NCBI RefSeq assembly: GCF_020595125.1
Contig: NZ_JACNMS010000001.1
Coordinates: 434,001-498,000 of the forward strand
DNA: 64,000 nt
Direction of reading: 5' to 3'
From: Jeotgalibacillus aurantiacus
GTDB lineage: Bacteria; Bacillota; Bacilli; Bacillales; Jeotgalibacillaceae
The translations under genes were made by a program, and so were the position numbers. Below the pieces are notes generated by a model. That model did no database searches and was not told the origin of the DNA. It worked only from the letters and a program-made list of their open reading frames with translations. Below, piece by piece: positions 14,479-62,441 of the stretch. Positions within the stretch are counted from its first letter, which is position 1. Every line of letters begins with the position of its first letter.

Positions 14479-14597
14479 ATTGTGAGGTTGTAATGGGAGT
14501 TCGTGAGGTTATTCGCTGAATTCGTCAGCTTACCACCGCAATTCGTGAGCTCACACCACAAGTTTGTCAGCTTCTCACGGAATTTGTCAGTTCAGTG
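14479..14597. repeat. 21-bp-period array A (core TTCGTGAG, six units)
   Basis: Cores GTGAG or GTCAG start at 14482, 14503, 14524, 14545, 14566 and 14586, spaced 21, 21, 21, 21 and 20. The consensus TTYGTSAGCTT is the reverse complement of the array G core. The rest of each unit varies. It lies between the second arsR and the ATP-grasp ligase gene. Confidence 0.75.
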
Positions 14598-14635
14598 ATA
14601 TTTGGCCTACACCGCCACAACCGCTCGCAATAAGA

Positions 14636-14662
14636 AAACCCCCATCCAAAGGACAGGGGTCT
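14636..14662 (-). terminator. Terminator of the SAM-riboswitch operon
   Basis: On the reverse strand GACCCCTGTCC and GGATGGGGGT pair around TTT and are followed by TTTTC. Confidence 0.7.
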
Positions 14663-14669
14663 CTATTTA

Positions 14670-15623
14670 TTATGCATTTACAACCGGAGCAACCTTTGCA
14701 AGCTCCTGCTTCAGATGATTCGCAAGCTCAAGCATACCGAACTTACCATGCTTCGCCTCAGCATCAGCATTGTAATTCGTGTTTGTGTTGATATCATATA
14801 CATAAATCTGTCCATTCTTATCCTTGATAAACTCGATGCCTGCCACGGCAATGTCGTTTTTCTCAAGGAATGTTTCAAGCTGAAGGATAAGTGGATCCTC
14901 AAAATTCTCCACAACCTGAAACTTAGGTTTTTCTTCAACTTCTTCCCCTACCGGACAGAATAAATCCCCGATCTGGCAGGCGTCAGCCGGGCAAAGCTCA
15001 AAGCCTTCTGACGTATCCACTCTGACAGCGTAGATAAATTTCCCGCCGACAAACTCACAGCGCGTGATATACGGCTCAGGTGCTTCAATATACTCTTGAA
15101 TCAGTGTAATGCCGTCTACCGGAAGCTCAAAATCATCACCATTCACATATTCCTTTAAACCTTCAATGGAATGAAACAGCTGGACACCAAGACCTTTCCC
15201 TGCCCGGTTGTGCTTTGTGATAAAAGAGGATTCACCAAGCTTTTCTGCAGCCTGGATAATCTGCTCTTTTCCAACTGCGGCAATCGTTTTTGGCGTCTTG
15301 ATACCATGAGATTGCAACGCTGTATACTGATTCACTTTACTGACTTCAAGACGAAGAGCACGCGATCCATTGAGAACGCGACGGCCATGCTGCTCAAGCC
15401 AGGCTAGGACCGACTCTGTTAATTCGGGTGCGAAACGGTGTCCGCGCGTATGAGATGAGGCACTCATTCTGCTGTAAAATACACCTTCAGGCGGCTCTTC
15501 TGTTAAATCCACAATTCCCTCGTCTAAATGCCAGACTTCATAAGGAACCTCTAATTCTTCAAGACGCTTCGTTAAATGAACCGTCCACTCATCATTTTCA
15601 TGTAATACATATACTTTACTCAT
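14670..15623 (-). CDS. RimK-type ATP-grasp ligase in an S-box operon
   Basis: The 317-residue protein is an ATP-grasp enzyme of the RimK/glutathione-synthetase type: an N-terminal pre-ATP-grasp region (about 1-95), the ATP-binding subdomain, and a C-terminal catalytic region ending in AGIEFIKDKNGQIYVYDINT, where the acidic and Asn residues bind Mg2+. Such enzymes join a carboxylate, activated as acyl phosphate, to an amine or thiol. A GAAGGAGTGAC site precedes ATG 15623, 20 bases after the monooxygenase stop, so both genes are read from the SAM-riboswitch promoter. This suggests a sulfur-related substrate, but none can be named. Confidence 0.8.
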   Translation of the reverse strand: MSKVYVLHENDEWTVHLTKRLEELEVPYEVWHLDEGIVDLTEEPPEGVFYSRMSASSHTRGHRFAPELTESVLAWLEQHGRRVLNGSRALRLEVSKVNQYTALQSHGIKTPKTIAAVGKEQIIQAAEKLGESSFITKHNRAGKGLGVQLFHSIEGLKEYVNGDDFELPVDGITLIQEYIEAPEPYITRCEFVGGKFIYAVRVDTSEGFELCPADACQIGDLFCPVGEEVEEKPKFQVVENFEDPLILQLETFLEKNDIAVAGIEFIKDKNGQIYVYDINTNTNYNADAEAKHGKFGMLELANHLKQELAKVAPVVNA

Positions 15624-15643
15624 GCTGTCACTCCTTCAAGTTG

Positions 15644-16702
15644 TTACGCATTGACCTGCTTTAGCAGTTTACGCTTTTCTTCAACCAGTGGCATAACCTT
15701 CTTTGAGAAACGCTCCATCTCTTCAAGCTGCGGAGAGAATTGAAGCAGTAACAGGTCAAGACCTGCATTTTCATAAGCAACAATCCGGTCAGCAATCTGC
15801 TCAGGTGTCCCAATTAAATTAGGACGCAGTCCGCGGTTGGAAACCGAATAATCCATTAGCTTTACCTGCTGCTCTAGCTGGGATTTGCTGACGAAATCAT
15901 TATACCCGGCATATCCGCTTACATCTTTCACGTCTGTGATGCGCTCAAGCTCAGCCTGAACCTCTTCCTCCGTATCACGGCAAATGATAAACGCGGCCAT
16001 TCCGAATGAACCGAACGGATCTTTTCCTGCTGCAGCGCGGCGTGTCTTCATGTCGGCAATTTTCGTTTCGATTTCTTCAAGCGTTCCACCGTGCATCACA
16101 TACGAGTCACAGTGCTCAACAATCGATTGCTTACCACGGGGGCTCTCACCGCCTGCATATAGAATCGGATTCGGACGCTGAACCGGTTTAGGCTCAAGCT
16201 TCGTATTTTCAATGTCATAGAATTTTCCTTTGAAGCTGAATGTATCTTCTGTCCAAAGTCCTTTTAAAATCTGAAGGAACTCATCCGTACGCTCATAGCG
16301 CTCATCATGCTCTGTAAATGCGCCGCCGTACTGCTTTGCTTCCTCAGCCCACCATGCAGACACGACATTCAGCGTAAAACGGCCGTTGGAAATATGGTCA
16401 ATATTTGACGCCATTTTAGCAGCTACAGCCGGATTATGAAAGCCCGGACGGATCGCCGTCATGATCTCAATTTTTTCTGTTACAGCTGCAAGTGCAGCAG
16501 CAGTAGACCACGCTTCAATCGAATCACGCTCAGGTCCCTTTATATCATTTAAATATAATTCAGCAATCAGTGTCGTATCATATCCCCAGTTTTCAGCGGA
16601 CTGAATGACCTTTTTTGCATAATCAAAGGTTGGCGGCATGTTTTCATCTTCTACGTTACGCAGCCATCCCCCGAAAATCGGAAGCCAAAATCCATATTTC
16701 AT
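15644..16702 (-). CDS. LLM-class flavin-dependent monooxygenase (SsuD/SfnG-like)
   Basis: The 352-residue protein has the luciferase-like TIM-barrel features of bacterial two-component monooxygenases. AAKMASNIDHISNGRFTLNV, VSAWWAEEAKQYGG and LKGLWTEDTFSFKGKFY match the SsuD/SfnG branch, which cleaves C-S bonds of sulfonates or sulfones using FMNH2 and oxygen. No flavin reductase or sulfonate importer is adjacent. I start it at ATG 16702 (AAAGGAGAG upstream) instead of GTG 16711, which is too close to the ribosome site. A SAM-I riboswitch controls it, so it is made when methionine/SAM is low, consistent with sulfur scavenging. Confidence 0.85.
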   Translation of the reverse strand: MKYGFWLPIFGGWLRNVEDENMPPTFDYAKKVIQSAENWGYDTTLIAELYLNDIKGPERDSIEAWSTAAALAAVTEKIEIMTAIRPGFHNPAVAAKMASNIDHISNGRFTLNVVSAWWAEEAKQYGGAFTEHDERYERTDEFLQILKGLWTEDTFSFKGKFYDIENTKLEPKPVQRPNPILYAGGESPRGKQSIVEHCDSYVMHGGTLEEIETKIADMKTRRAAAGKDPFGSFGMAAFIICRDTEEEVQAELERITDVKDVSGYAGYNDFVSKSQLEQQVKLMDYSVSNRGLRPNLIGTPEQIADRIVAYENAGLDLLLLQFSPQLEEMERFSKKVMPLVEEKRKLLKQVNA

Positions 16703-16746
16703 CTTTTCCACTCTCCTTTAAAAACGGTCGCACGTGATTTTGGGTA

Positions 16747-16775
16747 CAAAAAAACTTCTTCTGAGACAGAAGAAG
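16747..16775 (-). terminator. Intrinsic terminator of the SAM riboswitch
   Basis: On the reverse strand CTTCTTCTG-TCT-CAGAAGAAG is followed by a run of seven T. Upstream CAGAAG sequence can act as the competing antiterminator strand. Confidence 0.88.
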
Positions 16776-16794
16776 ATACTCGCAATACTTCTGT

Positions 16795-16900
16795 CTTATC
16801 TTCCAGGCAGCATTCGCCTGATGGATGTAGCACCTTTCTGACATAGTCAGCGGTTGCCGGGTTTCACAGGGCCATATCCCTCCACCACTCTCGATAAGAG
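16795..16900 (-). promoter_or_regulatory. SAM-I (S-box) riboswitch aptamer
   Basis: On the reverse strand CTCTTATCGAGAGTGGTGG, GAGGGATATGGCCC, GTGAAACCCGGCAACC, AAGGTGCTACATCC and the closing GAAGATAAG appear in the canonical S-box order, with P1 formed by CTTATC (16898-16893) and GATAAG (16800-16795). SAM binding should favour the downstream terminator and switch off the monooxygenase-ligase operon. Confidence 0.96.
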
Positions 16901-17011
16901 CTTATTCACTTTAATACGTTAATCCTATAACAATGCTTGGTATTCGTCAACACATAAAGTTTGGATTTTCAGAAAATTGTGTTCTGATTCTTATCGTCTA
17001 TACGATTCTAT

Positions 17012-17629
17012 TTAAAACGGCACATCCTCCTCTGTCCCGAACACATCATTCAGTTCCCAGCCGTATGAATCGACCACAAAGCCGATTGCACGAACGGTTT
17101 CTCTGTCTGTAGGATCATAGGGAATCGTCACTTCCCCGGTATCAGAAGAAAATGTATAGGAATATACCCGGAGTGACTCCTCATCCACAATACGCGTAAC
17201 CTCCTCTACCTCTTCCCAGGCAATGCTTTGTTCACTAAGACTCCAGAAAGAGTTCGCCTGTGCCCCGTCCTCATTTAAATAGGCATAGTGATAAACTGAA
17301 AACACAAACAAAGGCAATGTCAAAACAATAAGGAGAATATGTACACCTGTTAGCCTATACGTTTTACGCTTCTTTTCCGCATAAAGCTTTGTAAATAAAA
17401 ACGATATCAGCGTAAGACCGATTATGACCATTCCTGTACCGAATGCTAAAAACGCATCCATTGGTCTGATAAATGACCAATGATCAGCAGAAAAAAACAA
17501 TAGATCCTGAATCAAGATCACGACAAATCCCGGTATAAAAAATGCCATGATGATCATCAGAAGTCCTGCAGTCAATAAATACTTCATCATCGAATCAGCA
17601 TCAAAATTTCTTCGCTTCTTCATCCCCAT
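17012..17629 (-). CDS. Membrane protein of unknown function, 205 aa
   Basis: The protein has three likely membrane segments (about residues 15-40, 60-85 and 92-115) and then a soluble C-terminal domain of about 85 residues that ends in EEDVPF. The soluble part is acidic, with beta-like stretches such as SLRVYSYTFSSDTGEVTIPY. It begins at 17629, where a G-rich GCGGGGGG precedes; the in-frame ATG at 17623 is an alternative. I recognise no family. It is a single gene between the S-box leader and the CBS-domain transporter. Confidence 0.7.
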   Translation of the reverse strand: MGMKKRRNFDADSMMKYLLTAGLLMIIMAFFIPGFVVILIQDLLFFSADHWSFIRPMDAFLAFGTGMVIIGLTLISFLFTKLYAEKKRKTYRLTGVHILLIVLTLPLFVFSVYHYAYLNEDGAQANSFWSLSEQSIAWEEVEEVTRIVDEESLRVYSYTFSSDTGEVTIPYDPTDRETVRAIGFVVDSYGWELNDVFGTEEDVPF

Positions 17630-17732
17630 CCCCCCGCAAACATTATTTTACTTCTATACGCTTAGCAGCGCGAAAGAGTTTCAGGATCGCTAAAAATTCT
17701 GACACTTTTTCAGTCATTATCTTATCAACAAA

Positions 17733-17769
17733 TAAAAACGGGGCATATGGTCTGAAACCACATGCCCCG
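17733..17769 (-). terminator. Terminator after the CBS-domain transporter
   Basis: CGGGGCATATGGT and ACCACATGCCCCG form a 13-bp stem, followed on the reverse strand by TTTTTATT. Confidence 0.9.
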
Positions 17770-17777
17770 CGCTTTAT

Positions 17778-19040
17778 TTATTGAATATCCTCATCATCCT
17801 TCACGCCATCAATCATGCGCTTTTCAATGCGGACCTTCGTAATTTTATTTTTTTCCATTTCGAGAACAGTAAAGCGTAAGTGCTGGTAATCAAACTCATC
17901 GCCCTCTTCAGGCAGGTGACCGACTTCCTTCAGCACGAAGCCTGCAAGAACGTCCTGTTCTTCCGGAATTTTCGTCTTAAACACTTCATTTAAACGATGG
18001 ATGTTCAATTTACCGTGACAAATAATCGTTCTCTCCGTCAGCTCATCAATCCATACTTCTTCTTCATCATCATTTTCATCGGCAATTTCCTGGCCGATCA
18101 TCGCTTCAATGATATCTTCATGGGTGATGATGCCGAGTGTCCCGCCGTATTCATCGAGAACAATTGCAAAATGCTTTTTAGCCTGAAGCATCCGTTTGAA
18201 AATGCGTTCAATAGATGTTGATTCCACAGTGAACAAAGGATCGTCATCCATAAAGTCTGAAAATGGACGGTCCGGTTCCAGTGACCATTCGATCACCTGT
18301 TTCGAGTGGAAAACCCCTACAATGTTATCCATATTTTCTTTATAAACAGGATATCGCGTGTACGGATTATCAATCACATAATCACGCGCTTCCTCATATG
18401 TCGTTTCAAGCGGCATACCGATGATATCTACACGCGGCGTCTTCATCGCGTCACCGACGTCTTTATGCTGGAAATCGAGTACACCTTTAATGCGAAGTGA
18501 TTCATCATCTAAAAATGTACCTTCCGTTGAAGCAATATCAACCATTGTTCTAAGCTCTTCCTTCGTAATCGTTGCTTCTTTAATATCGCCTTTGGATAAA
18601 ATACGGATCACGATATTCGTAAATTGAGAAAGCAACCATGTAACCGGGCGAAGTAATTTCATTAAAACCCGTATAACCGGTCCCACAATATAAGCAATCC
18701 GGTCAGCAAAAGTCGCAGCGATTGTCTTTGGCAATACCTCAGCAAAGATAATCAGCGTCACGGTTAATACTCCCGTTGCCAGGGCCACTTCAATGTCATA
18801 ATTAATCGCAATGATCGTGACAAGTGTCGGAAGCAGAATGTTCGCAATGTTATTCCCGATCAGAATCGTTGTGATCATCTGATCCGGCTTTGATACTTGA
18901 TGTAACAGTTTTTCAGCAGCCCGGTCTCCTTGTTCTGCACGGGTTTTTACCTTCATTTTGTTAACAGCAGTCAGCGCTGTTTCACTTCCGGATAAAAAGA
19001 ACGAGACGAAAAGCAAGACAGCTATGGCTATAAATTCCAA
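17778..19040 (-). CDS. CNNM/CorC-type transporter (DUF21, CBS pair, CorC_HlyC domain)
   Basis: The 420-residue protein has an N-terminal DUF21 domain with four membrane segments (about 1-190) that starts FLSGSETALTAVNKMKVKTR. A CBS pair follows (about 205-325, with TPRVDIIGMPLETTYEEARD and FAIVLDEYGGTLGIITHEDI), then a C-terminal CorC_HlyC domain (about 340-412). These proteins export or sense Mg2+ or related divalent cations; B. subtilis MpfA and YugS are relatives. An AGGAGGAATA ribosome site precedes the start. It has no operon partner. The older name hemolysin-like is misleading, since no toxin role is indicated. Confidence 0.88.
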   Translation of the reverse strand: MEFIAIAVLLFVSFFLSGSETALTAVNKMKVKTRAEQGDRAAEKLLHQVSKPDQMITTILIGNNIANILLPTLVTIIAINYDIEVALATGVLTVTLIIFAEVLPKTIAATFADRIAYIVGPVIRVLMKLLRPVTWLLSQFTNIVIRILSKGDIKEATITKEELRTMVDIASTEGTFLDDESLRIKGVLDFQHKDVGDAMKTPRVDIIGMPLETTYEEARDYVIDNPYTRYPVYKENMDNIVGVFHSKQVIEWSLEPDRPFSDFMDDDPLFTVESTSIERIFKRMLQAKKHFAIVLDEYGGTLGIITHEDIIEAMIGQEIADENDDEEEVWIDELTERTIICHGKLNIHRLNEVFKTKIPEEQDVLAGFVLKEVGHLPEEGDEFDYQHLRFTVLEMEKNKITKVRIEKRMIDGVKDDEDIQ

Positions 19041-19205
19041 CGATATTCCTCCTGATAATAAACAGTATGTAAAATGTTTAAAACTAGCGTATACTAATCC
19101 GTTTCAGATTTCCACTATCATCGTCTGAAAAAACAATCTTTTTAAGATGGGTAAATTGAAATTTGAGGATAATCGGAGTAAAGTTAAGAGGATTGGTGAT
19201 CTGCC

Positions 19206-19586
19206 TTACGGGACGGCATTACATAATACCTAAAACAACGAAAGCCCTAACCTCTCTTTCGTCCTTGCGGCTCCGAGACCGCGCCAGTGTGAATCAGATA
19301 CTACTTTAAAATGGATGTTCCATTCATTAAAGTGTACTGGAATTTTTGGTCTGAAAGGGTTCGGTGAGATAGAACCATAGAAGTGAACAGTCATTTGATG
19401 CGTAGATCAAGTGCAGACTTCGGGCAACGTACCCGAAAATAGAGGGTAAATGCTTAAATCGGTGTCAAACGATACTAACTGCTTAAGCATGCTCTTGTTG
19501 AGATGCTTCATTCAGGCCTTGAAACTCCAGACCTTTTTATTCAATTGTTGCGGCTGGCGATGCCGCTTCTTACAACCGTCCCGTAA
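19206..19586 (+). ncRNA. Candidate structured RNA of about 380 nt closed by a long-range helix
   Basis: TTACGGGACGG (19206-19216) is exactly complementary to CCGTCCCGTAA (19576-19586), 360 nt away. Within are further stems: ACTTTAA/TTAAAGT (19303-19309 with 19327-19333), GGTTC/GAACC (19358/19372), CGGG/CCCG (19421/19432), TGCTTAA/TTAAGCA (19451-19457 with 19483-19489) and GCGGC/GCCGC (19550/19562). There is no credible reading frame. Strand is uncertain; + is chosen because TATACT at 19090 could be a -10 box and the M20 gene follows on +. Hallmarks of tmRNA, RNase P RNA, 6S, SRP and known riboswitches were not found. It could be a free RNA or the leader of the dipeptidase gene. Confidence 0.5.
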
Positions 19587-19650
19587 AACGATCAACGATA
19601 AGCATAACAAACGCAACCGGGCATGTCAATATTTTTTAGGAGGATGTATC

Positions 19651-21024: not shown

Positions 21025-21043
21025 GATGTTTATTTAATAAACC

Positions 21044-21307
21044 GGGCTGGATCCATCCTTCGCTTTCCTTTGTCTAGCTATGTCGGGCAGGGACTAGCAA
21101 ACTTCCCGTCCCCTCGTCCGATAAGTCAACATCAGCTCACTCTGTTCGCTGTGTTTCCTTTATCTCCGTCGGGGCCAGTCCAGTTTGTACGTCCCTGAGC
21201 GCCCACCTCCGCTTTTCCAAGACCGGGCGGTGAACCACCACGTGCTGCGCACGCTGGTGTTTCACCTGTCCCTTCCTGTCACAGGAGTCTTCGGATGGAT
21301 CCAGCCC
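21044..21307. repeat. Family I hairpin repeat interrupted by a family II repeat
   Basis: The outer arms GGGCTGGATCCATCC (21044-21058) and GGATGGATCCAGCCC (21293-21307) are perfect 15-bp inverted repeats. The core parts (CGCTTTCC; GGCGGTGAACC; TTTCACCTGTCCCTTCCTGT; CACAGGAGTCT) match other family I copies of about 115 bp. Here about 150 bp of family II sequence splits the core. Confidence 0.8.
21067..21220. repeat. Family II repeat, copy a, nested inside a family I copy
   Basis: On the reverse strand it reads GGAAAAGCGGAGGTGGGCGC, then GGGACGTACAAACTGGAC, GATAAAGGAAACACAGCGAA, GAGCTGATGTTGACTTATCG and GGGAAGTTTGCTAGTCCCTG. These blocks match 43701-43838 closely and share architecture with 62201-62324. 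Confidence 0.75.
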
Positions 21308-21355
21308 TTAATAATAAATTCTCAACTTAATTTTCGTGGAGGAGAAATAGGAATG

Positions 21356-21441: not shown

Positions 21442-21598
21442 TTAGGATAAGTCTAGAATCTCTTCTTTCTATAGAATTAAAAAACAATAAAATCCAGACC
21501 CACTCAATATCAGATCTCACCACAAGAGTCTATGGAATGACAAGGCATTTTTATATTTTCTGTCTCAAATAATTTTAGAACACACTATCTTTATCAGA

Positions 21599-21815
21599 CC
21601 TCAATTTGACGCGGAATTTAAGAGGATAAAAGCGGGGATATTATCCGCGTCAAAGATCACTGGAGAATCGTTGAATGTGATGGTTCATTTGTCACTATTT
21701 TATGAAGGTCCGCTTACATTTTACGAACATGACTCAATATCTTGTGAATCTGATCATTTATCTTGCGAACATAGCTATTAATCTTACGAACCTTGGCCGA
21801 AATTCCGCGTACGAA
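21599..21815. repeat. 217-bp tandem duplication, first copy, with GACGCGG hairpin and array B1
   Basis: Nearly the whole segment recurs at 21816-22032 with few differences, offset exactly 217. Its left part is a hairpin, TTTGACGCGGA (21605-21615) with TCCGCGTCAAA (21644-21654). Its right part is an array whose GAA cores start at 21704, 21725, 21746, 21767 and 21788, all 21 apart, then one at 21813. Confidence 0.85.
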
Positions 21816-22032
21816 CCTCAATTTGACGCGGAATTTAAGAGGATAAAAGCGGGGATATTATCCGCGTCAAAGATCCCTGGAGACGCGTTGAATGTGATGG
21901 GTAATTTGTCACTATTTTATGAAGGTCCGCTTACATTTTACGAACATGACTCAATATCTTGTGAACCTGATCATTTATCTTGCGAACATAGCGATTAATC
22001 TTACGAACCTCGACCAAAATGCTGCGAACGAA
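21816..22032. repeat. 217-bp tandem duplication, second copy, with hairpin and array B2
   Basis: The hairpin arms are at 21822-21832 and 21861-21871. The GAA cores (as in TTACGAAC or TTGCGAAC) start at 21921, 21942, 21963, 21984, 22005 and 22026: six units at exactly 21. The sixth unit is in register here but displaced by 4 bases in the first copy. Confidence 0.85.
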
Positions 22033-22053
22033 TCCCCTCTTCTATTCACACAC

Positions 22054-34148: not shown

Positions 34149-34275
34149 TTTCCTTCTAATCAGAAATTAATTCCTTCACAAGGTGTTTGCCCCTCACTTT
34201 TCCCTTCAAACCGGAACTTTATTCCTTCTTTCCACCCACACGATTCCTTCATTTCAGCGAAGGATTCCCTCAATT
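34149..34275. repeat. 21-bp-period array C (core ATTCCTTC), less regular
   Basis: TCCTTC-like cores begin at 34151, 34172, 34202, 34223, 34245 and 34266, spaced 21, 30, 21, 22 and 21. It lies between ywbE and the helicase gene, with a GACGCGG hairpin just after. Confidence 0.6.
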
Positions 34276-34308
34276 CACTTTCCTGCACTTTCAACAAACA
34301 CAAAACAG

Positions 34309-43615: not shown

Positions 43616-43700
43616 AACAATGCCCCTCCTTTCCCTAATCGTACCGAACTTATCACCTAAAGAAAACTAAATTTTATCAATTTACGGGTAATTTATGATA

Positions 43701-43850
43701 GAAATGTGGAGGCGGGCGTTAAGGGACGTACAAACTGGACCGGCCTCGGCGAAGATAAAGGAAACACAGCGAACGCAGTGAGCTGATGTTGACTTATCGA
43801 ACGAGAGGACGGGAAGTTTGCTAGTCCCTGCCCGCCGGAACTGGACACAG
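43701..43850. repeat. Family II repeat, copy b
   Basis: It shares GGGACGTACAAACTGGAC, GATAAAGGAAACACAGCGAA, GAGCTGATGTTGACTTATCG and GGGAAGTTTGCTAGTCCCTG with the reverse strand of 21067-21220. Its first bases (GAAATGTGGAGGCGGGCG) recur, slightly altered, at 43850-43869, immediately before array D. Confidence 0.82.
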
Positions 43851-43872
43851 AAATGTGTAGGCGGGTGTTGGG

Positions 43873-43991
43873 TTTGGACACTTCTGGAGCAAACTTGGTC
43901 ACATTTCAGCTGAACTTGGACACTTTCAGCTGCTACTTGGTCACTTCCCCCCTCAACTTGGACACATCCATTCTCAACTTGGTCACCTTCA
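43873..43991. repeat. 21-bp-period array D (TTGGACAC/TTGGTCAC, six units)
   Basis: Cores begin at 43874, 43895, 43916, 43937, 43958 and 43979, all exactly 21 apart. The fifth core base alternates A, T, A, T, A, T. The consensus unit is AACTTGGWCACTT plus about eight variable bases. Confidence 0.93.
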
Positions 43992-44089
43992 AGAACAATC
44001 CCGGCGAAGACCGGGGGCTCTTCAAGATCTCAGGTACCTAAATGCATTCCACTGGGACGCTGACGCTTGTGAGAAAGAAAAATCTTGCA

Positions 44090-44206
44090 TTTGACAACCT
44101 ACTCTTCTGATTTAACAACTTTTTATCATTATTCGACAACTCTTCTATGGTATTTGACAACTTGAAGCGCTTATTACACAACTTTCCCTCTCCATTTAAC
44201 ACCTCG
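44090..44206. repeat. 21-bp-period array E (core TTTRACAAC, six units)
   Basis: Cores TTTGACAAC, TTTAACAAC, TTCGACAAC, TTTGACAAC, TTACACAAC and TTTAACACC begin at 44090, 44111, 44132, 44153, 44174 and 44195, exactly 21 apart. Array F carries the reverse-complement core. Confidence 0.92.
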
Positions 44207-53847: not shown

Positions 53848-53966
53848 GAGTGGTTAAATCATTGGATAGAGTGGTTAAATAATCGAAAAAAGTGGTTAAA
53901 TAACCTAAAAGAGTGGTCGAATAACCCGAACAAGTGGTTAAATAACCCCTAATAGTTGTCAAATAA
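53848..53966. repeat. 21-bp-period array F (core AGTGGTTAAATAA, six units)
   Basis: GTGGTTAAAT-type cores begin at 53850, 53871, 53892, 53913, 53934 and 53955, exactly 21 apart; the last is GTTGTCAAAT. The reverse complement (ATTTRACMACT) matches array E. Confidence 0.93.
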
Positions 53967-54088
53967 ATTCAATCACAGCGAAATATTTTCATCCTATTTG
54001 TTGTCATACAATATAAAACAAACATTATAAGCTGCACCCCGATTCAGTTTATTTAAAACAAAAATAAGAAGGACAATTATGGAACTTA

Positions 54089-54201
54089 GGGCCGGGGCGC
54101 ATCCGAAGACTCCTGTGGCGGAAAGCGACAGGTGAGACAGATGTGCGCAGCACAGCTGGCTCACCGCGCGGCCACGGAAAGCGCAGGATGCGCCCCGGCC
54201 C
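54089..54201. repeat. Family I hairpin repeat, inverted relative to the copies at 33.8 and 54.8 kb
   Basis: Arms GGGCCGGGGCGCATCC (54089-54104) and GGATGCGCCCCGGCCC (54186-54201) are perfect 16-bp inverted repeats. The core, read on the reverse strand, matches the other copies (GGCCGCGCGGTGAGCCAGCT and TGTCTCACCTGTCGCTTTC). Confidence 0.92.
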
Positions 54202-54823: not shown

Positions 54824-54938
54824 GGACGGTCCTCACCCTGCGCTTTCCGTGGCCGCGCGGTGAGCCAGCTAGTGCTTCGCACTACGCTGTCTCACCTGTC
54901 GTTTCTCCGCCACAGGAGTCTTCGGGTGAGGACCGTCC
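54824..54938. repeat. Family I hairpin repeat, 115 bp
   Basis: Arms GGACGGTCCTCACCC (54824-54838) and GGGTGAGGACCGTCC (54924-54938) are perfect 15-bp inverted repeats around the shared family I core. Confidence 0.92.
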
Positions 54939-55084: not shown

Positions 55085-55121
55085 AGTTTTATTGTGGAGG
55101 TATAGGCCATAAGTTACTGAA

Positions 55122-55238
55122 CTGACGAATTGGTGCTGTAAGCTCACGAACCTTGGCTTGATCCTGACGAATTTTTCTTACAAACTCACGAATCTGTCTT
55201 CTATCCTCACAAACTCCCTCCTCAAACTCACGTCACAT
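55122..55238. repeat. 21-bp-period array G (core CTCACGAA/CTGACGAA, six units)
   Basis: The G of CGAA (or its equivalent) is at 55127, 55148, 55169, 55190, 55211 and 55232, exactly 21 apart. The first four cores alternate GACGAA, CACGAA, GACGAA, CACGAA. It matches array A in reverse complement and resembles array B. Confidence 0.9.
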
Positions 55239-55274: not shown

Positions 55275-55277
55275 CTA

Positions 55278-56270: not shown

Positions 56271-56324
56271 TTTCATTTCCTCCTTAATGGGTCGTGCAAG
56301 TATTTGCGATCACATAGTTAGGAA

Positions 56325-56350: not shown

Positions 56351-56389
56351 AATTTCGGGTGTCTATATGTGGAAATTCATGCTAAGGGA

Positions 56390-56854
56390 CTAGTTGCGTT
56401 TACCGGTTAAGATCATAGATGCCATTGCCGGAGAATATTTTTCTAGTAAAGAAATGGACTCCTCTTTTAAAACATCAGGTTCGTATGTATACAATCTTTC
56501 TTTCATGTAGGGCATGGCTTCAATCATCTGATCAATATTCATATATTTATCTTTCACAGCAAATACAACGTGACGTATATTTGCCATTACAATAGTTGAA
56601 AGGCACATAATACAGGGCTCGACTGTCGTATAAAGTATACACTCCCGTGAAAATTCATTAAGATATGGAATACATTGATTAATTGCATTGATCTCAGCAT
56701 GAGCCAGGTTATTCTTGTTAGTATGTCTCTGATTTCTTCCTTTGGCGATAATCGTTCCATTGTGCACGATGACACTTCCTATTGGTAAATTACCTTGTTC
56801 TCCTGCTGATCTTGCTTCCTTTAAAGCTTCCAGCATAAACATTTTATGGCTCAA
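56390..56854 (-). CDS. Cytidine/deoxycytidylate-type nucleoside deaminase
   Basis: The product of 154 residues has the zinc deaminase motif AHAEINAI (His ligand and catalytic Glu) and TTVEPCIMCLSTIVMANI (two Cys ligands). LPIGSVIVHNGTIIAKGRN precedes, as in guanine deaminases and TadA-like enzymes. Substrate choice among guanine, cytidine or tRNA adenosine cannot be decided. A TTG at 56854 is eight bases after AAGGAGG and is the best start; a GTG at 56863 is too close. It appears monocistronic. Confidence 0.85.
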   Translation of the reverse strand: MSHKMFMLEALKEARSAGEQGNLPIGSVIVHNGTIIAKGRNQRHTNKNNLAHAEINAINQCIPYLNEFSRECILYTTVEPCIMCLSTIVMANIRHVVFAVKDKYMNIDQMIEAMPYMKERLYTYEPDVLKEESISLLEKYSPAMASMILTGKRN

Positions 56855-56945
56855 AACAAACACCTCCTTTATGCAATTATACCTACATTCGGAATTTTAC
56901 GTGTGAAAATTAAGACTCCTGCACTGTAGAACACTTATAAACATT

Positions 56946-56980
56946 AAAAAATCCGGAAACCATTCAAGGCTTCCGGATTT
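56946..56980 (-). terminator. Terminator of the aldo/keto reductase gene
   Basis: AAATCCGGAA and TTCCGGATTT pair (56949-56958 with 56971-56980), and the reverse strand continues with TTTTT. Confidence 0.9.
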
Positions 56981-56987
56981 ATCTTTC

Positions 56988-57815
56988 TTATTCGTGGTGC
57001 ATATCGTTTGGATGTGGCCCTTTTCGCTCGCCGCGATCAAGGTCGTTGATGCTCTTCATTTCATCCTCAGTCAGTTCGAAATCAAATACATCGAAGTTCG
57101 ATTCGATGCGTGATGGTGTCACGGATTTCGGGATGACAATTGAGTTACTTTGCAAATGCCAGCGGATGACTACCTGTGCCGGGCTTTTGCCGTATTTCTC
57201 TGCAATGTTGCGGATGATGTCGTCTTCAAGAACGGCTCCACCCTGCATCAGCGGGCTCCATGCTTCTACGAAAATATCATGCTTCGCACAGAATTCCTTG
57301 AGTTCATTTTGGGCAAGGTACGGATGGCACTCTACCTGATTTAACACAGGTTTTACTGTACACTCGTCCATTAAGCGCTGGAGATGCTCAATTTCAAAGT
57401 TGCACACGCCAATCGCTTTCACTTTGCCCTCTTCATATAACTTTTCCATTGCTTTATACGTATCTACATAACGGTCTTTTTCAGGCATTGGCCAGTGCAC
57501 AAGATATAGATCCACATAATCAAGTCCAAGCTTTTCAAGACTTGTATTGAAGGCTTCGATCGTGCTGTCATAGCCCTGGTCAGCGTTCCAGACCTTTGTT
57601 GTAATGAAAAGATCTTCACGCGGAACCCCTGCAGCGCGAATCCCTTCGCCTACCGCTTCTTCGTTTTTGTAAATCATGGCTGTGTCGATTGAACGATAGC
57701 CGGTTTCGATTGCTTTTTTCACTGAATCTACACCAGTCTGGTGATCTTCCACCTGCCAGACACCAAGTCCGATTTGAGGCATTTTCAGCCCGTTGTTTAA
57801 AGTAACGTAGTCCAT
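56988..57815 (-). CDS. Aldo/keto reductase (YvgN/YtbE-like)
   Basis: The 275-residue TIM-barrel enzyme uses NADPH to reduce aldehydes. GYRSIDTAMIYKNEEAVGEG contains the catalytic Asp and Tyr, FITTKVWN the lysine and DLYLVHWPMP the histidine. IPKSVTPSRIESNFDVF binds the cofactor phosphate. Relatives in Bacillus (YvgN, YtbE) reduce glyoxal and methylglyoxal, so detoxification is likely. AAAGGAGC precedes the ATG. Confidence 0.92.
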   Translation of the reverse strand: MDYVTLNNGLKMPQIGLGVWQVEDHQTGVDSVKKAIETGYRSIDTAMIYKNEEAVGEGIRAAGVPREDLFITTKVWNADQGYDSTIEAFNTSLEKLGLDYVDLYLVHWPMPEKDRYVDTYKAMEKLYEEGKVKAIGVCNFEIEHLQRLMDECTVKPVLNQVECHPYLAQNELKEFCAKHDIFVEAWSPLMQGGAVLEDDIIRNIAEKYGKSPAQVVIRWHLQSNSIVIPKSVTPSRIESNFDVFDFELTEDEMKSINDLDRGERKGPHPNDMHHE

Positions 57816-57946
57816 GTTAAAAGCTCCTTTCGAAATTCGAAATATGTACCTGCATAGTATATACAGGCGATTCCCAAAAATCTAGCACAATGACTTCCAC
57901 TTTTTGAACATGCCCGATTTTCCAGCACATAAAACATGTCAATCGG

Positions 57947-58693
57947 TCAACTGTTCAGAACAAACTTCCGGATTGCCTTTGCCACACCATCCCGTTCATT
58001 CGTATCCGTCACCCAGTCAGCCTCATTCTTCACAGCTTCCTGCGCATTTCCCATCGCAACACCAATGCCGGATTCTCTGATCATCGCGAGATCATTTAAG
58101 CTGTCACCGACTGCCATGACCGAATCCATCGTGATATTGAGACGATCGCATACTTTACGGATCGCTGCCGCTTTGTTAATACCCGCTGCATTGACCTCGA
58201 GATTGGTTGGACTGGAGTTCGTGATTTCGAGCACTTTTCGACCTTCAAGCTCTTTTCTAATGGTTTCACGAATTTCGTCATCCTCCACGTTAAACCCGAA
58301 CTTCAGCCACTGATAGTCATGAATGTTTTCCGGGAAGCTCGTGCGTTTATTCCAAACACCTTCGACCGTTGAAGACCAGTAGTTCGTATTATGTTTTTGA
58401 GCAAGGTTGTACATAAATTCAATATGGGAAGAGCCAATTTTAGTACGGTCAATGAGGTTCAGATGCTCATCCCAGATTTCACTGCCGTTTACCGTAATTA
58501 AGTAGGTTGCAAGACCAAGTGATTCCACGATTTCCTGACAGTAAACGAGTGGCCGTCCCGTACTGATCATGACGCCGACTCCCTGATCCTGGGCAGATTT
58601 TATCGCCGCCCGATTTTCATCGGAAACGGAATGATCATTACGCAAAAGCGTGCCGTCCATATCTAGTGCAATGAGTTTTATGGTTGATGTCAT
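57947..58693 (-). CDS. Cof-type HAD phosphatase
   Basis: The 248-residue enzyme starts at ATG 58693 (GAAGGGAG upstream); a frame extending to 58924 is rejected, since it overlaps the divergent neighbouring gene. LIALDMDGTLL holds the nucleophile and acid Asp, ISTGRP the motif II Thr, and the metal-binding acids lie in VMAVGDSLNDLAMI. The middle cap domain is of the Cof type. These phosphatases act on sugar phosphates, flavin or PLP; substrate unknown. Confidence 0.9.
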   Translation of the reverse strand: MTSTIKLIALDMDGTLLRNDHSVSDENRAAIKSAQDQGVGVMISTGRPLVYCQEIVESLGLATYLITVNGSEIWDEHLNLIDRTKIGSSHIEFMYNLAQKHNTNYWSSTVEGVWNKRTSFPENIHDYQWLKFGFNVEDDEIRETIRKELEGRKVLEITNSSPTNLEVNAAGINKAAAIRKVCDRLNITMDSVMAVGDSLNDLAMIRESGIGVAMGNAQEAVKNEADWVTDTNERDGVAKAIRKFVLNS

Positions 58694-58823
58694 AGCCGTT
58701 CTCCCTTCAATTACTGCTTTCAGTATAACTTGATGAAAAAATAATTTCGAACCCTTAAAGGAATTCAACTGCAACATCACGAATCTTTCATGTAAAAGTT
58801 TGGCAGATCGGAGTTGAACAATC

Positions 58824-59309
58824 ATGAAGCTGAAAAAATCAGCGAAGCGCGGTCTATGGGTGATCGGAACAACATTACTGGTTATTATTGCGTTGCATAC
58901 ATTTGTCGGGAACCCTTCCTTCAATCATGCCGTGGCGGAAGAATATCTGGAAAATGAGATTGCCTGGACAAACGAAGGTGGTGTTGTGACGGATGCTTTT
59001 AAAGTTTACGGGGGCAATGAGGAGGAAGTTTATATCTGGTATGCTTTTGAAGAATTTATTACAGAGAAAAACGATATTGGCGGCGGTGCTTCCATTGCAG
59101 TAAAACTGATTGTTGAAGATGGAATCGTGACTGATCATCAGATTCCGGAGGATGGTTCACTTTATATGGAAAGTATGAAGGAGCTTTTTCCTTTTCACAT
59201 AAGATGGAGAATGCCACAAGCCATTCCCTTATCTCTGGAGAAAGCCATTGAACTCGAGCAGTCTGCACTTTTAGCTGCGTTTGAAGAAGAACAAAACCAG
59301 AATGAATAA
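58824..59309 (+). CDS. Exported or membrane-anchored protein of unknown function
   Basis: The 161-residue protein has a basic N-terminus and one hydrophobic segment (WVIGTTLLVIIALHTFVG, about residues 12-29), followed by an extracellular acidic domain with SIAVKLIVEDGIVTDHQIPE and a C-terminal helix. No cysteine for lipid attachment is present, so it is an anchored or cleaved signal-peptide protein. GGAGTTG precedes the ATG. No family recognised. Confidence 0.7.
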   Translation: MKLKKSAKRGLWVIGTTLLVIIALHTFVGNPSFNHAVAEEYLENEIAWTNEGGVVTDAFKVYGGNEEEVYIWYAFEEFITEKNDIGGGASIAVKLIVEDGIVTDHQIPEDGSLYMESMKELFPFHIRWRMPQAIPLSLEKAIELEQSALLAAFEEEQNQNE

Positions 59310-59319
59310 ACATACATCA

Positions 59320-59375
59320 CACCCTTTGTGAATAACTGCCGGCTTCAGGCGTTATATCCACGAAGGGTGTTTTTC
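59320..59375 (+). terminator. Terminator after the 161-aa gene
   Basis: ACACCCTT (59320-59327) pairs with AAGGGTGT (59364-59371), with inner GTGAATAAC and GTTATATCCAC helping, and TTTTT follows. Confidence 0.85.
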
Positions 59376-59511
59376 ATCCTTTTAACGAACTCACTCCTCC
59401 TCGACTGTCACCCTATATTCACCCATTCAGAAAATTCATTGCCCGTCAGATGATTGAATACTCATTCATTTATCTAAATTTTAAAAATATTATGAAATTT
59501 TTAAAATAGGG

Positions 59512-59561
59512 TTGCATTCGTCATAATTCTGTAATATAGTCTAAGTGTGAAAACGATTTCA
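59512..59561 (+). promoter_or_regulatory. Promoter and cre/LacI-type operator of the sugar ABC cluster
   Basis: TTGCAT (59512-59517), 17 bases, TATAGT (59535-59540). TGAAAACGATTTCA (59548-59561) fits the cre consensus exactly and sits at about +1, so CcpA, the LacI-type protein encoded next, or both could bind it. Confidence 0.78.
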
Positions 59562-59607
59562 TATCATTTCATGACAAATGGGGGTGTTCCTATAGGAGGG
59601 CTAGCGC

Positions 59608-60594
59608 GTGTACACCATTAAAGATGTTGCGTTGAAAGCTGGGTTGTCACAGGCTACCGTTTCGAGAGTGATTAATAATCATCCGTATGTCAGTGAAGAC
59701 AAGAAACGAGCTGTTAAAAAAGCGATGGATGAGCTTGGGTTTGTCCCTAATTCATCAGCGCAAAGGCTGCGAAACATAAAGACAAAAAAGATCGCGGTTC
59801 TCATTTCAAGAATTGTAAACCCTTTCTTTAGCCAGCTCGTTGATGCCATGGAACAGAAAGCGGCAAGACACGGTTATCAGCTGATTTTATGCAACACACG
59901 AATCAGCCGGGAGAAGGAGCTTGAATATTTTCAGCTTCTGAAGTCAAAGCAGGTCGATGGCATTATTATGGCGTCGGTTGAAAATGATTGGAGTGTTATT
60001 GAGCCTTATACGAAATACGGCCCGATCATTTACTGCAATGAATATGATCCCAACGCTTCCTTAACCCGGGTCAGACTTGACCAGGTTGAGGGCGGCTATA
60101 TTGGTACAAAGCACTTACTCGACAAAGGACACCGGAAAATCGGGTATTGTCAGGGCAATGACAGCAGCGTTTCTGTGAACCGTCGTAAAGGATATTTGAA
60201 AGCGGTTACAGAAGCCGGAATCGAACCAAATCCTGATTGGATGTTTAAGAATATTTTTACGATTGACGATGGACGTGCCATTTTCAGAAGAATTGCGGAT
60301 ATGAATGATGCACCTACAGCTCTCTTTACGGGGAGTGATGAGGTGGCAGCAGGCGTCATCAAGGAAGCCCAGACTCACGGGTGGAAGGTTCCGGATGATT
60401 TAGCGGTCATCGGATTTGATGATCAGCCGATTGCGTCTCTTCTTGATCCACAGATTACAACGATTAACCAATTTACTTCTGATATTGGGGAAACAGCAAT
60501 GAAAGTCATGCTTGAGATCGTTCAGGGCAAACGCAAAAATAATTCAACTGATATCTTACTCCCGATTCAATTAATTGAAAGACAATCAACTTAA
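59608..60594 (+). CDS. LacI family transcriptional regulator
   Basis: The 328-residue repressor has an N-terminal LacI helix-turn-helix (TIKDVALKAGLSQATVSRVI) and hinge helix, then a periplasmic-binding-protein-like sugar domain. GLVF-type strands such as IAVLISRIVNPFFSQLVDAM and VIGFDDQPIASLLDPQIT are typical. It starts with GTG at 59608 after AGGAGG. It probably represses itself and the ABC importer genes that follow 22 bases later, releasing on binding a sugar. Confidence 0.92.
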   Translation: MYTIKDVALKAGLSQATVSRVINNHPYVSEDKKRAVKKAMDELGFVPNSSAQRLRNIKTKKIAVLISRIVNPFFSQLVDAMEQKAARHGYQLILCNTRISREKELEYFQLLKSKQVDGIIMASVENDWSVIEPYTKYGPIIYCNEYDPNASLTRVRLDQVEGGYIGTKHLLDKGHRKIGYCQGNDSSVSVNRRKGYLKAVTEAGIEPNPDWMFKNIFTIDDGRAIFRRIADMNDAPTALFTGSDEVAAGVIKEAQTHGWKVPDDLAVIGFDDQPIASLLDPQITTINQFTSDIGETAMKVMLEIVQGKRKNNSTDILLPIQLIERQST

Positions 60595-60616
60595 AACAAT
60601 TAGGGGGGCTTCATTA

Positions 60617-61945
60617 ATGAAACTTTGGAACAAGAAAGTTGCAGGAGCAACAGTACTGACACTAAGTATGCTATTAGCTGCTTGTAGTGGAGACGACGAA
60701 GCGACAGATACTGGAGGAGACACTGGTGGTGACACAGGCGGCGATGCAGGTGGCGAAGAGGAACAGGTAACCATCACGTATGCAGCCGGTGTTGACGTAA
60801 CTGGTGCAACAGAAGCGCTAATTGCAGCATTTGAAGAACAAAACCCGAATATTAACGTAGAATACCGTGAGATGCCTGCAGATACAGGTGCTTCTCATGA
60901 CCAATATGTAACGATGTTTTCTTCTCAGAGTGCTGAGGTTGACGTATTTGATGCCGACGTAATCTGGCCAGCTGAATTTGCACAGGGACAATACGCACTT
61001 GAGCTTGACCGCTATATTGAAGCAGACGGAATTGATATGGAGCAGTACTTCCCTGGAACGGTTGCTTCAGGAAACTTTAACGGCCGTCAGTATGCAATGC
61101 CGAAATTTACGGATGCGGGACTTCTTTACTACCGTACAGACATCGTGAGTGAAGATCAGGTTCCGACAACTTGGGATGAGCTTTTTGAAGCAGCAGGTAC
61201 GCTTCAGGGTGAAGGCGGTACAGAATTCGGTTACCTGATGCAGGCTAACCAGTATGAAGGTATGATCACAAATGCAATCGAGTTCATCGCTTCTCACGGT
61301 GGACAGGTTGTAGATGAAAATAACGAGGTTGTTGTTAACAGCCCTGAAACGATTGCCGGAATCCAGAAAATGATTGATTTCGTTAACTCTGATTTCGTAC
61401 CAAGCAATATCTTAAGCTTCCAGGAAACTGAAACAAACAACGCATGGGTTGGCGGACAGGCTGTATTTGCCCGTAACTGGCCTTACATGCAGTCTACTTC
61501 AAATGACGAAGAAGCATCTGAAGTAGCAGGTAACGTAGGATTCGCGGTTCTTCCGGCTGGTGAAGGCGGAACAAACGCAGCAACACTTGGCGGATGGATG
61601 TCAATGATCAACCGCTACAGTGAGCATCCGGACGAAGCTTGGGAATTTGTGAAGTTCATGACTGGTGAAGAAGGACAAAAGATCAGTGCAGTTGAAGGTG
61701 GACGTGCTCCAACAATTGCAGCACTATATGAAGACAGTGAAGTTCAGGATGCAGCGGCTCTATTTGCTAACGAGCAGTTCGTAGAAACACTTCAAAACGC
61801 AGTACCAAGACCAGTATCACCAATCTATCCACGTATCTCTGATATCATGCAGGTTCAGCTGTCACAAGCATTGGCTGGAGAAATCACAGCTGAAGAAGCA
61901 GCGGCCAACATGGAAGCAGAAATTATGGCGGCAATGGAAGAATAA
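60617..61945 (+). CDS. Sugar ABC transporter substrate-binding lipoprotein
   Basis: The 442-residue protein starts at ATG 60617 after TAGGGGGGC. A signal peptide ends in the lipobox LLAACSG (lipidated Cys23). A linker of repeated GGDTGGD follows, then a family 1 binding fold (TITYAAGVDVTGATEALIAA, AMPKFTDAGLLYYRTDIV, AATLGGWMSMINRYSEHPDE). It resembles maltose/trehalose-type binding proteins. It delivers a sugar to the two permeases; no ATPase is in the window, so a shared MsmX-type ATPase may be used. Confidence 0.92.
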   Translation: MKLWNKKVAGATVLTLSMLLAACSGDDEATDTGGDTGGDTGGDAGGEEEQVTITYAAGVDVTGATEALIAAFEEQNPNINVEYREMPADTGASHDQYVTMFSSQSAEVDVFDADVIWPAEFAQGQYALELDRYIEADGIDMEQYFPGTVASGNFNGRQYAMPKFTDAGLLYYRTDIVSEDQVPTTWDELFEAAGTLQGEGGTEFGYLMQANQYEGMITNAIEFIASHGGQVVDENNEVVVNSPETIAGIQKMIDFVNSDFVPSNILSFQETETNNAWVGGQAVFARNWPYMQSTSNDEEASEVAGNVGFAVLPAGEGGTNAATLGGWMSMINRYSEHPDEAWEFVKFMTGEEGQKISAVEGGRAPTIAALYEDSEVQDAAALFANEQFVETLQNAVPRPVSPIYPRISDIMQVQLSQALAGEITAEEAAANMEAEIMAAMEE

Positions 61946-61972
61946 TCAGCGTTTGACGGTTTATGGGGATGG

Positions 61973-62187
61973 ACCGTTTAACGTGTAACATTAAACGGTT
62001 TATAAGCAAGTGCAAGGCTCGGGATCGGCTGGTTTGAGTGATTCAAATCAGCTGTTTCTCTGCCCTGCTTCTTTAGAGAATTCTATAAAGATCATGCATT
62101 TGCACTCATAACCAGCGTTTTACAGCACGCCAATAGCTGTTCTATGATAATTGACTGCTAAAGGGGGGTGGCGTGATCACCTCCCTT
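61973..62187 (+). terminator. Series of hairpins between binding-protein and permease genes
   Basis: ACCGTTTAA/TTAAACGGT (61973-61981 with 61991-61999), a 12-bp stem with G-U pairs at 62026-62054, and AAAGGGGGGTG/CACCTCCCTTT (about 62160-62187) followed by CTTTGT. The last looks like an intrinsic terminator, so the binding protein could be made in excess over the permeases. Confidence 0.6.
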
Positions 62188-62200
62188 TCTTTGTATAAAA

Positions 62201-62324
62201 GGAAAAGCGGAGGCGACTCGTCCAGCCCCGACAAGCATAAGGCGAAGATTAAAAGAGGGCTGACCTTCGCCCTCGTTCAGCTTTGACTTATGACCTCGAG
62301 GGGCTAGTCGCCGCAGCTGGACAC
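62201..62324. repeat. Family II repeat, copy c (variant)
   Basis: GGAAAAGCGGAGGCGACTCG, CAGCCCCGACAAGCATAAGG, GAGGGC/GCCCTC hairpin, TTTGACTTATGACCTCGAGG and GGCTAGTCGCCGCAGCTGGA form the architecture of a widespread Bacillaceae dispersed repeat (from memory). A partial second start (AAAAAGCGGAAGCGAGCG) leads directly into array H. Confidence 0.8.
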
Positions 62325-62346
62325 CAGAAAAAGCGGAAGCGAGCGT

Positions 62347-62441
62347 TTGGCCACTTTCGATAGGAACTTGGACACTTTCCCTGCCAACTTGGTCACTTTT
62401 GGGCTCAACTTGGACACTTTTGATCGCGATCTGGTCACTTT
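62347..62441. repeat. 21-bp-period array H (TTGGACAC/TTGGTCAC, five units)
   Basis: TTGGCCAC, TTGGACAC, TTGGTCAC, TTGGACAC and CTGGTCAC begin at 62347, 62368, 62389, 62410 and 62431, exactly 21 apart, with the same A/T alternation as array D. Confidence 0.9.

What the first reader, a model, noticed from the sequence alone, without database searches (positions are those of the whole stretch)
14479..62441. Eight intergenic arrays of short repeats with an exact 21-bp period
Arrays A (14479), B1/B2 (21701-22032), C (34149), D (43873), E (44090), F (53848), G (55122) and H (62347) each contain 5-6 copies of an 8-13-bp core whose starts are spaced exactly 21 bp in nearly every case. The remaining bases of the unit are free to vary. 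21 bp is two turns of B-DNA, so all cores in an array face the same side of the helix, as in iterons or centromere-like protein arrays. Unit number is nearly constant (six). The cores differ by locus, yet spacing and copy number are kept, so spacing seems to be what is selected. I know no named element with this description.
Basis: seen in the sequence. Interest (0 to 1): 0.85.

Follow-up and report, generated by a model that had tools for sequence, protein, structure and literature searches.

The report
Phased 21-bp intergenic repeat arrays
Bacteria of the genus Jeotgalibacillus carry many short non-coding rows of five or six look-alike DNA motifs spaced almost exactly two helix turns apart; in one species with a one-piece chromosome they were not found where replication ends, as if a chromosome-organising protein docks on them.

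Summary
The window (Jeotgalibacillus-like, 44.5% GC) has nine lag-21 arrays in non-coding DNA against none in 200 shuffles; other lags are near zero apart from the harmonic 42. A rough estimate is 142 arrays per genome. The cores form a few families (A/G, D/H, by eye E/F). The main family (48 arrays) has 5-6 units, 21-bp steps, a 20-bp last step in 34 of 48, and a conserved end block. Cores change less than spacers (10.5% vs 18.8%). At the argD-carA junction five species keep six motifs in register without an indel while most of the core differs: spacing is what is kept. In congener G004 45 mapped arrays lie within 1.16 Mb of the origin and none in a 1.26-Mb terminus zone, nearly the gap of Noc-type sites. 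They are not Noc sites; coding, RNA structure, transposon ends and recent genome-wide mobility are not supported. Best reading: docking platforms for an unidentified protein with a chromosome-scale role. Against it: no binder found; the window's own genome has one array about 0.2 Mb from its skew switch, so there the terminus is depleted, not empty; another genus (G237) has 2 of 8 loci near its terminus.

The parts
14478..14614 (+). Array A: main family (GTTYGTSAGSTTA), six units, one 20-bp step, then end block AGTGATATTTGGCCTACACC
   Evidence: a close relative in Jeotgalibacillus sp. R-1-5s-1 (L030)
21598..22032 (-). Arrays B1 (about 21687-21817) and B2 (about 21904-22032): GTTCGYAAGATTA type, array plus linker duplicated in tandem, 217-bp period
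   Evidence: by eye the same gap holds arrays with other cores in G001 and G004
34149..34290 (.). Array C: weak array with TTCCTTC core, steps not all 21
43873..43998 (+). Array D: AACTTGGWCACTT family, A/T alternating from unit to unit (strand arbitrary)
   Evidence: present in G009
44090..44205 (-). Array E upstream of argC: on the - strand AGTTGTCAAATA
   Evidence: present in G009; a CGATAWATCC array stands before argC in G008
53848..53970 (+). Array F: AGTGGTTAAATAACC, strongest array of the window (strand arbitrary)
   Evidence: present in G009
55100..55236 (-). Array G: main family, end block at its left end
   Evidence: five other species have an array in the same gap but after the left gene and on the other strand
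62349..62441 (+). Array H: same family as D (strand arbitrary); a 21-bp length difference against its G009 counterpart

Best explanation
Each array is a row of about six asymmetric binding sites in direct orientation on one face of the DNA helix. An unidentified DNA-binding protein (or paralogues that differ in the second half of the site) fills the row side by side and builds a compact nucleoprotein patch. Shown: the geometry, the constraint on cores and spacing, the conserved end block in the main family, the preference for convergent gene ends, and, in G004, confinement to the origin-side part of the chromosome with nearly the same terminus gap as Noc-type sites; in the window's own genome the terminus region is depleted but holds at least one array. 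Inferred: that a protein binds, that binding is cooperative, and that the role is chromosome-scale (nucleoid occlusion, anchoring or compaction of the origin domain), because sites of a purely local function have no evident reason to be scarce at the terminus.
For: Lag specificity and shuffles. Of 148 close main-family steps 131 are 21 bp, 15 are 20, two are 15-16, none 17-19 or 22-27. Counterparts in held G009 sequence were found for 21 arrays (of 57 that pass the same filter): length change inside the array 0 bp in 14, 1-2 bp in 3, 21-23 bp, about one unit, in 4 (pairs are best hits, window D was paired with a copy that is not its orthologue, and L016:10156 and L017:2974 are doubtful). Substitutions in 16 main-family pairs: core 135/1282, spacer 142/754, flank with coding 818/7352; core below spacer in 14 of 16. 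argD-carA: five species, motifs in register (29 of 30 GTTC, one ATTC in G006), no gap inside, gaps on both sides, end block kept. G004: 45 arrays, grouped by hand from 100 of 103 pattern hits listed in position order, all within 1.162 Mb of the origin. 25 stretches of 20 kb spread over G004: 11 arrays in 12 origin-side stretches, 0 in 13 terminus-side ones at threshold 46, 17 and 0 at 44, 9 and 0 at 48, with similar intergenic supply, 34.7 and 32.5 kb (20 of the 25 were picked, and the split made, after one search was seen). Noc-type sites in G004 leave the gap 1.151-2.408 Mb, arrays 1.092-2.354 Mb. Window's genome: 0 arrays in seven stretches (140 kb) of the contig with the skew switch, 21 in 19 others (379 kb), none of the 26 chosen by a hit. 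noc lies 8 kb and a second ParB-family gene 10 kb from the end of the G004 contig, which places the origin. PMC4726725 (passages): NBSs and SBSs are underrepresented in Ter, and arrays of them put there delay division.
Against: No binding protein found. The hit-chosen stretch L022 has a clear main-family array at G000:C2:146606, about 0.2 Mb from the skew switch of that contig (between 320 and 400 kb), so the terminus is not empty in the window's own genome. In another genus (G237, core GTTCCCATAA) 2 of 8 loci lie within about 0.4 Mb of the terminus as placed by skew. Three of 12 congeners (G002, G005, G010) show no array in 80 kb each and 0-1 pattern hits genome-wide, so the system is dispensable. 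A genome holds several core families, which would need several binders or a lax one. Near-identical arrays cluster locally by duplication, as a passive repeat would. The G004 map covers GTTC-type cores only; other cores are covered only by the sampled stretches.
Confidence: 0.38

Rival explanations
1. A passive or selfish intergenic repeat (comparable in habit to REP/BIME or MITE elements) that spreads by local duplication and rare dispersal, settles at gene ends, and is thinned out near the terminus by selection or chance of history.
For: Tandem and neighbouring near-identical copies; preference for convergent gaps (18 of 56 against 28 of 228 others, p = 0.0009); two families side by side in one gap (G003); presence or absence at orthologous gaps between species; a few distant pairs with spacer identity 0.70-0.75.
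Against: No inverted repeats of 25 bp or more in the two clusters tested, no IstA-type domain in the own genome, spacers of distant arrays nearly random on average (0.327 in register, 0.301 out of register, 0.287 expected), cores more conserved than spacers between species.
Confidence: 0.34
2. A gene-end insulator: proteins on the array act as a roadblock that stops read-through between convergent or tandem genes.
For: Of 66 oriented non-coding arrays 50 lie in sense orientation behind the upstream gene; enrichment in convergent gaps.
Against: 16 of 66 are antisense to the upstream gene; the array stands before the terminator-like hairpin at argD-carA but behind one at the G locus; of 24 arrays within 150 bp of the stop 13 have a T-run in between, 11 do not; does not explain the terminus gap.
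Confidence: 0.15
3. An RNA element in 3' untranslated regions.
For: Mostly sense orientation behind genes.
Against: No folding signal (mean z -0.70 and -0.13 on the two strands, 25 arrays); no Rfam match at an array at gathering threshold; some arrays lie behind terminator-like sequences.
Confidence: 0.07
4. Coding or decayed coding heptad repeats (21 bp = 7 codons; the main core reads LTN on one strand with variable third positions).
For: Degenerate positions of the main core fall every third base; true heptad-coding repeats do occur nearby (L016:3742-4191); stops in the LTN frame are slightly fewer than expected.
Against: The 20-bp step in 34 of 48 arrays breaks the frame; stops 3 against 5.5 expected, sd 1.9, are within chance; other families vary at other positions (read).
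Confidence: 0.03

Closest known systems
Noc binding sites (NBS) of Bacillus; SlmA sites of E. coli
   Same: Many dispersed chromosomal sites, scarce in the terminus region; nearly the same gap in G004
   Different: NBS are 14-bp palindromes; the arrays are asymmetric direct repeats without that motif; Noc's helix-turn-helix segment is identical in the 12 congeners with and without arrays
RacA binding sites (origin side, B. subtilis)
   Same: Origin-side dispersed sites for a chromosome-anchoring protein (recalled; four passages of PMC6593407 seen)
   Different: Recalled: RacA sites are GC-rich inverted repeats; I did not search for RacA here
Iterons of plasmid origins
   Same: Direct repeats about two helix turns apart in rows of about five to seven (recalled)
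   Different: Dispersed at perhaps 140 chromosomal places; no Rep family among 24 scanned proteins
REP/BIME and MITE intergenic repeats
   Same: Non-coding, at gene ends, many copies (recalled)
   Different: No long inverted repeats in the two clusters tested; spacers mostly not shared between distant copies; fixed phasing
TAACTGA direct repeats of Beggiatoaceae (PMC4679880)
   Same: Abundant intergenic direct repeats of unknown role
   Different: Different motif and organisms; start of the abstract in a listing and seven passages seen

Membership tests
Noc binding sites | 14-bp palindrome ATTTCCCGGGAAAT (letters recalled; PMC4726725 says 14-bp palindromic consensus) | tested here: not met
   20 sites with at most 1 mismatch in G004 are a separate set; main-family logo is a different, asymmetric motif
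Noc binding sites | Scarce in the terminus region | tested here: met
   G004: gap 1.092-2.354 Mb against NBS gap 1.151-2.408 Mb; in G000 only depleted, one array near the skew switch
Noc binding sites | Presence follows Noc's DNA-binding domain | tested here: not met
   Noc in 12 of 12 congeners, HTH segment identical, while three show no arrays in 80 kb each
IS21-type transposon ends | IstA-type domain PF22483 in the genome | tested here: not met
   0 matches in own genome; control rings in 3 of 14 genomes
MITE | Terminal inverted repeats | tested here: inconclusive
   0 inverted repeats of 25 bp or more in two array clusters; shorter ones and other clusters not tested
MITE | Target-site duplication | not tested
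   No empty-site junction was analysed
Iteron arrays of replication origins | Several direct repeats about two turns apart | tested here: met
Iteron arrays of replication origins | Cognate rep gene beside the array | tested here: inconclusive
   24 proteins near arrays of the window and L016 scanned with Pfam, no Rep family named; not genome-wide
CRISPR arrays | Identical repeats with unique spacers that turn over between strains | tested here: not met
   Degenerate cores; spacers align in register between G000 and G009 at 18.8% substitution; cas genes not searched
Coding heptad repeats | Open frame kept, stops avoided | tested here: not met
   3 stops observed, 5.5 expected, sd 1.9; 20-bp last step in 34 of 48 arrays

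The most novel reading that the evidence does not exclude
An unrecognised chromosome-organising system of the Bacillales: about a hundred register-locked DNA arrays per genome, concentrated on the origin side of the chromosome, in which geometry is inherited and the recognition sequence is exchangeable between sister species and between paralogous binders. It would act as a second positional code beside ParB/parS and Noc.
Probability: 0.27. Interest if true: 0.9.

Novelty: new variant of a known kind. Interest (0 to 1): 0.72.

Why it matters
If right, a genus carries a large, overlooked set of chromosomal protein-docking sites whose map in G004 mirrors that of nucleoid-occlusion sites yet does not belong to Noc. 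Sites whose position and phasing are kept while the recognition sequence changes would let one ask directly how a DNA-binding protein and some hundred sites change specificity together. It also warns that 21-bp tandem tracts in Bacillales genomes can be non-coding although they read like heptad-repeat proteins.

Tried and rejected
Heptad coding: tempting because the main core reads LTN with variable third positions; set aside on the 20-bp step, stop counts and other families. IS21 ends: no transposase domain in the own genome. Recent genome-wide mobility: among 1128 main-family pairs of the sampled stretches the 25 most alike lie each within one stretch; spacers of arrays in different stretches are nearly random, though a few pairs reach 0.70-0.75. 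CRISPR-like array with leader: set aside, spacers do not turn over. RNA structure: no signal. Plasmids and phages: no match to one main-family array (E up to 0.01) in either collection. Period-42 alternation: visible in D and H, but only 23 of 71 arrays are more alike at 42 than at 21. Noc sites next to arrays: one lies beside an array at C1:948152; proximity in general was not tested. Orientation to replication in G004, hand count: right arm 16 of 21 on the - strand, left arm 12 of 24 on the + strand; no clear rule. Literature: eight searches of a library of openly licensed papers listed no paper on 21-bp phased chromosomal arrays; subscription papers are not held, so this is no proof of novelty. 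Order-level pattern search: 112 of 397 genomes match GTTC x4 at 21 bp, but many matches are in reading frames and the reversed control pattern also hits in many genomes (nine loci read), so this is no count of arrays.
Full report
OBSERVATION. The window is G000:C1:434001-498000 of a 3.51-Mb draft genome in 19 contigs. In 22 non-coding gaps of the window 9 lag-21 arrays stand against 0 in 200 dinucleotide shuffles. In 422 kb of the genome (window plus 20 stretches, 14 of them chosen by similarity to array A) lag 21 gives 50 loci, lag 42 gives 32, other lags from 15 to 45 give 0-3. In 26 stretches not chosen by a hit (519 kb, 9 of them from the contig that holds the terminus) there are 21 non-coding arrays, roughly 142 per genome. 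Some lag-21 positives are coding: L016:3742-4191 is a gene with heptad repeats.

ANATOMY. Main family (48 arrays read from G000 stretches): core GTTYGTSAGSTTA; units span 6 in 28, 5 in 17, 4 in 2, 7 in 1. Close steps: 131 of 21 bp, 15 of 20 bp, one each of 15 and 16 (stricter units). The short step sits at the last junction in 34 of 48 arrays and inside an array once. It is followed by a block close to AGTGTAAWTWGRCCTA, beyond which flanks differ. The unit at the other end is often degenerate. Other families in the same genome: GTTCGCAGAATTT, AGTTGTCAAATAACC / AGTGGTTAAATAACC, and AACTTGGWCACTT; the last is preceded by a dispersed repeat in 4 of 4 places found in 41 sequences. Whole arrays with linker are often duplicated in tandem at about 160-217 bp.

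CONSTRAINT. Of 57 arrays of the window and first 20 stretches (same filter) 21 had a counterpart in held G009 sequence: no length change inside the array in 14, 1-2 bp in 3, and 21-23 bp, about one unit, in 4. Pairs are best hits in a limited pool; window D was paired with a copy that is not its orthologue. For 16 main-family pairs substitutions are 135/1282 in cores, 142/754 in spacers, 818/7352 in flanks, which include coding sequence; core is below spacer in 14 of 16. The argD-carA junction is the clearest case: G001, G003, G004, G006 and G011 each carry an array there, on the same strand, with six motifs at identical positions (29 of 30 GTTC, one ATTC in G006) and no gap inside the array, while both sides have gaps. 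The rest of the core is about GTTCGACGTAA in G001 (mixed), GTTCGGAGAAAAA in G003, G004 and G006, and GTTCAKGARATT in G011. No array was found there in G000, G009, G002, G008 and G010; in G005 and G007 an anchor was missing. In the gap of array G the same five species have an array behind the left gene (G001 only at the threshold of 42), whereas G000 and G009 have one behind the right gene on the other strand. So location and phasing outlast the core. Some arrays mix two core types (matches). D, E, F and H: only G009 shares them clearly; for D/E the anchors failed in the other ten species.

NOT SUPPORTED: CODING, RNA, RECENT MOBILITY. The LTN frame shows 3 stops against 5.5 expected, sd 1.9, in 131 units, and the 20-bp step breaks the frame. 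RNA folding z-scores average -0.70 and -0.13 (25 arrays). Rfam at gathering threshold finds a SAM riboswitch and BsrC in the window, nothing at arrays. Spacers of arrays in different stretches agree at 0.327 (925 pairs), against 0.301 out of register and 0.287 by composition; within one stretch 0.581 (102 pairs). The best distant pairs reach 0.70-0.75, so some older dispersal occurred. No IstA-type domain; no inverted repeats of 25 bp or more in two clusters; no match of one array in plasmids or phages.

PLACE. Convergent gaps of 130 bp or more hold an array in 18 of 56 cases, tandem gaps 23 of 165, divergent gaps 5 of 63 (p = 0.0009 for convergent against the rest; G000 stretches, partly chosen by hits). 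Of 82 arrays with genes on both sides, 5 lie in frames and 11 have no clear orientation; of the remaining 66 (six genomes, mostly G000) 50 lie in sense behind the upstream gene. Arrays stand before a terminator-like hairpin at argD-carA and behind one at the G locus (by eye), which speaks for DNA rather than RNA. Genes scanned near arrays of the window and L016 are ordinary and share no theme (24 proteins).

CHROMOSOME SCALE. G004 has a 3.516-Mb main contig; noc sits 8 kb and a second ParB-family gene 10 kb from its end, and skew and gene strand flip between 1.7 and 1.8 Mb. Of 103 GTTC x4 pattern hits 100 are listed in position order up to 3.479 Mb; grouped by hand they are 45 arrays, all within 1.162 Mb of the origin, none between 1.092 and 2.354 Mb. 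The chance of so small a maximum distance is 8e-9 under uniform independent placing; clustering makes this too small. Free of the core, 25 stretches give 11 arrays in 12 origin-side and 0 in 13 terminus-side stretches at threshold 46 (17 and 0 at 44) with similar intergenic supply; 20 of the stretches were picked after one search was seen, and masked bases were skipped. Twenty Noc-type sites with at most one mismatch leave the gap 1.151-2.408 Mb (chance of such a gap 0.0036). In G000 seven stretches (140 kb) of the contig with the skew switch have 0 arrays against 21 in 379 kb elsewhere. But a stretch chosen by a hit, L022, holds a clear main-family array at C2:146606, about 0.2 Mb from the switch (between 320 and 400 kb of C2), conserved in G009. 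So in G000 the terminus is depleted, not empty. PMC4726725 (passages) reports that NBSs and SBSs are underrepresented in Ter and that arrays of them placed there delay division. Against generality: in G237, another genus with core GTTCCCATAA, 2 of 8 loci lie within about 0.4 Mb of the terminus as placed by skew.

READING. The arrays look like DNA platforms where a protein binds side by side on one helix face. Geometry and constraint are shown, and the terminus gap in one species; the protein, its cooperativity and its role are inferred. They work somewhat like iterons in geometry and like Noc sites in distribution, but fail or do not complete the membership tests of both. Noc is present in all 12 congeners with an identical helix-turn-helix segment, while G002, G005 and G010 show no array in 80 kb each. 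Similar non-coding arrays with other cores were read in other Bacillales genomes (G058, G200, G237, G268, G327; five of nine loci read), so the phenomenon is wider than the genus.

Noticed in passing
window 43698-43863 and 62202-62348: Two related dispersed repeats of about 150 bp, many copies in G009 (up to 94% and 99% identical), often in tandem; such a repeat directly precedes each D/H-family array found (4 of 4).
   Followed up: partly
window 54100-54190, 54837-54930, 21039-21310: REP-like palindromic repeats and relatives with many matches in G009, G001, G004 and G006.
   Followed up: no
window 16793-16900 (-) and 19225-19312 (+): SAM riboswitch and BsrC small RNA (Rfam).
   Followed up: no
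L016:3742-4191: A 149-aa protein with true heptad repeats coded at 21-bp period, beside non-coding arrays; a warning for lag-21 scans.
   Followed up: yes
L017 about 2974-3165 (G000:C1:948152): A canonical Noc site lies directly beside a D/H-family array.
   Followed up: partly
L091:10260 (G007) and L092:415 (G008): Congeners with sparse arrays use quite different cores (ACGGCYTGYAAATG; CGATAWATCC), the latter upstream of argC like array E.
   Followed up: partly
L034:4840-4980: A Stahlbacteria MAG has near-identical 21-bp repeats of GTGAACTCACGAA, the same letters as the main core; coding or not is unclear.
   Followed up: no
Noc genes, L192-L194, L207-L216: The open frame of Noc is about 8-13 codons longer in the seven array-rich species (299-301) than in the five others (288-291), mostly upstream of the likely start; clade and arrays are confounded.
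   Followed up: no
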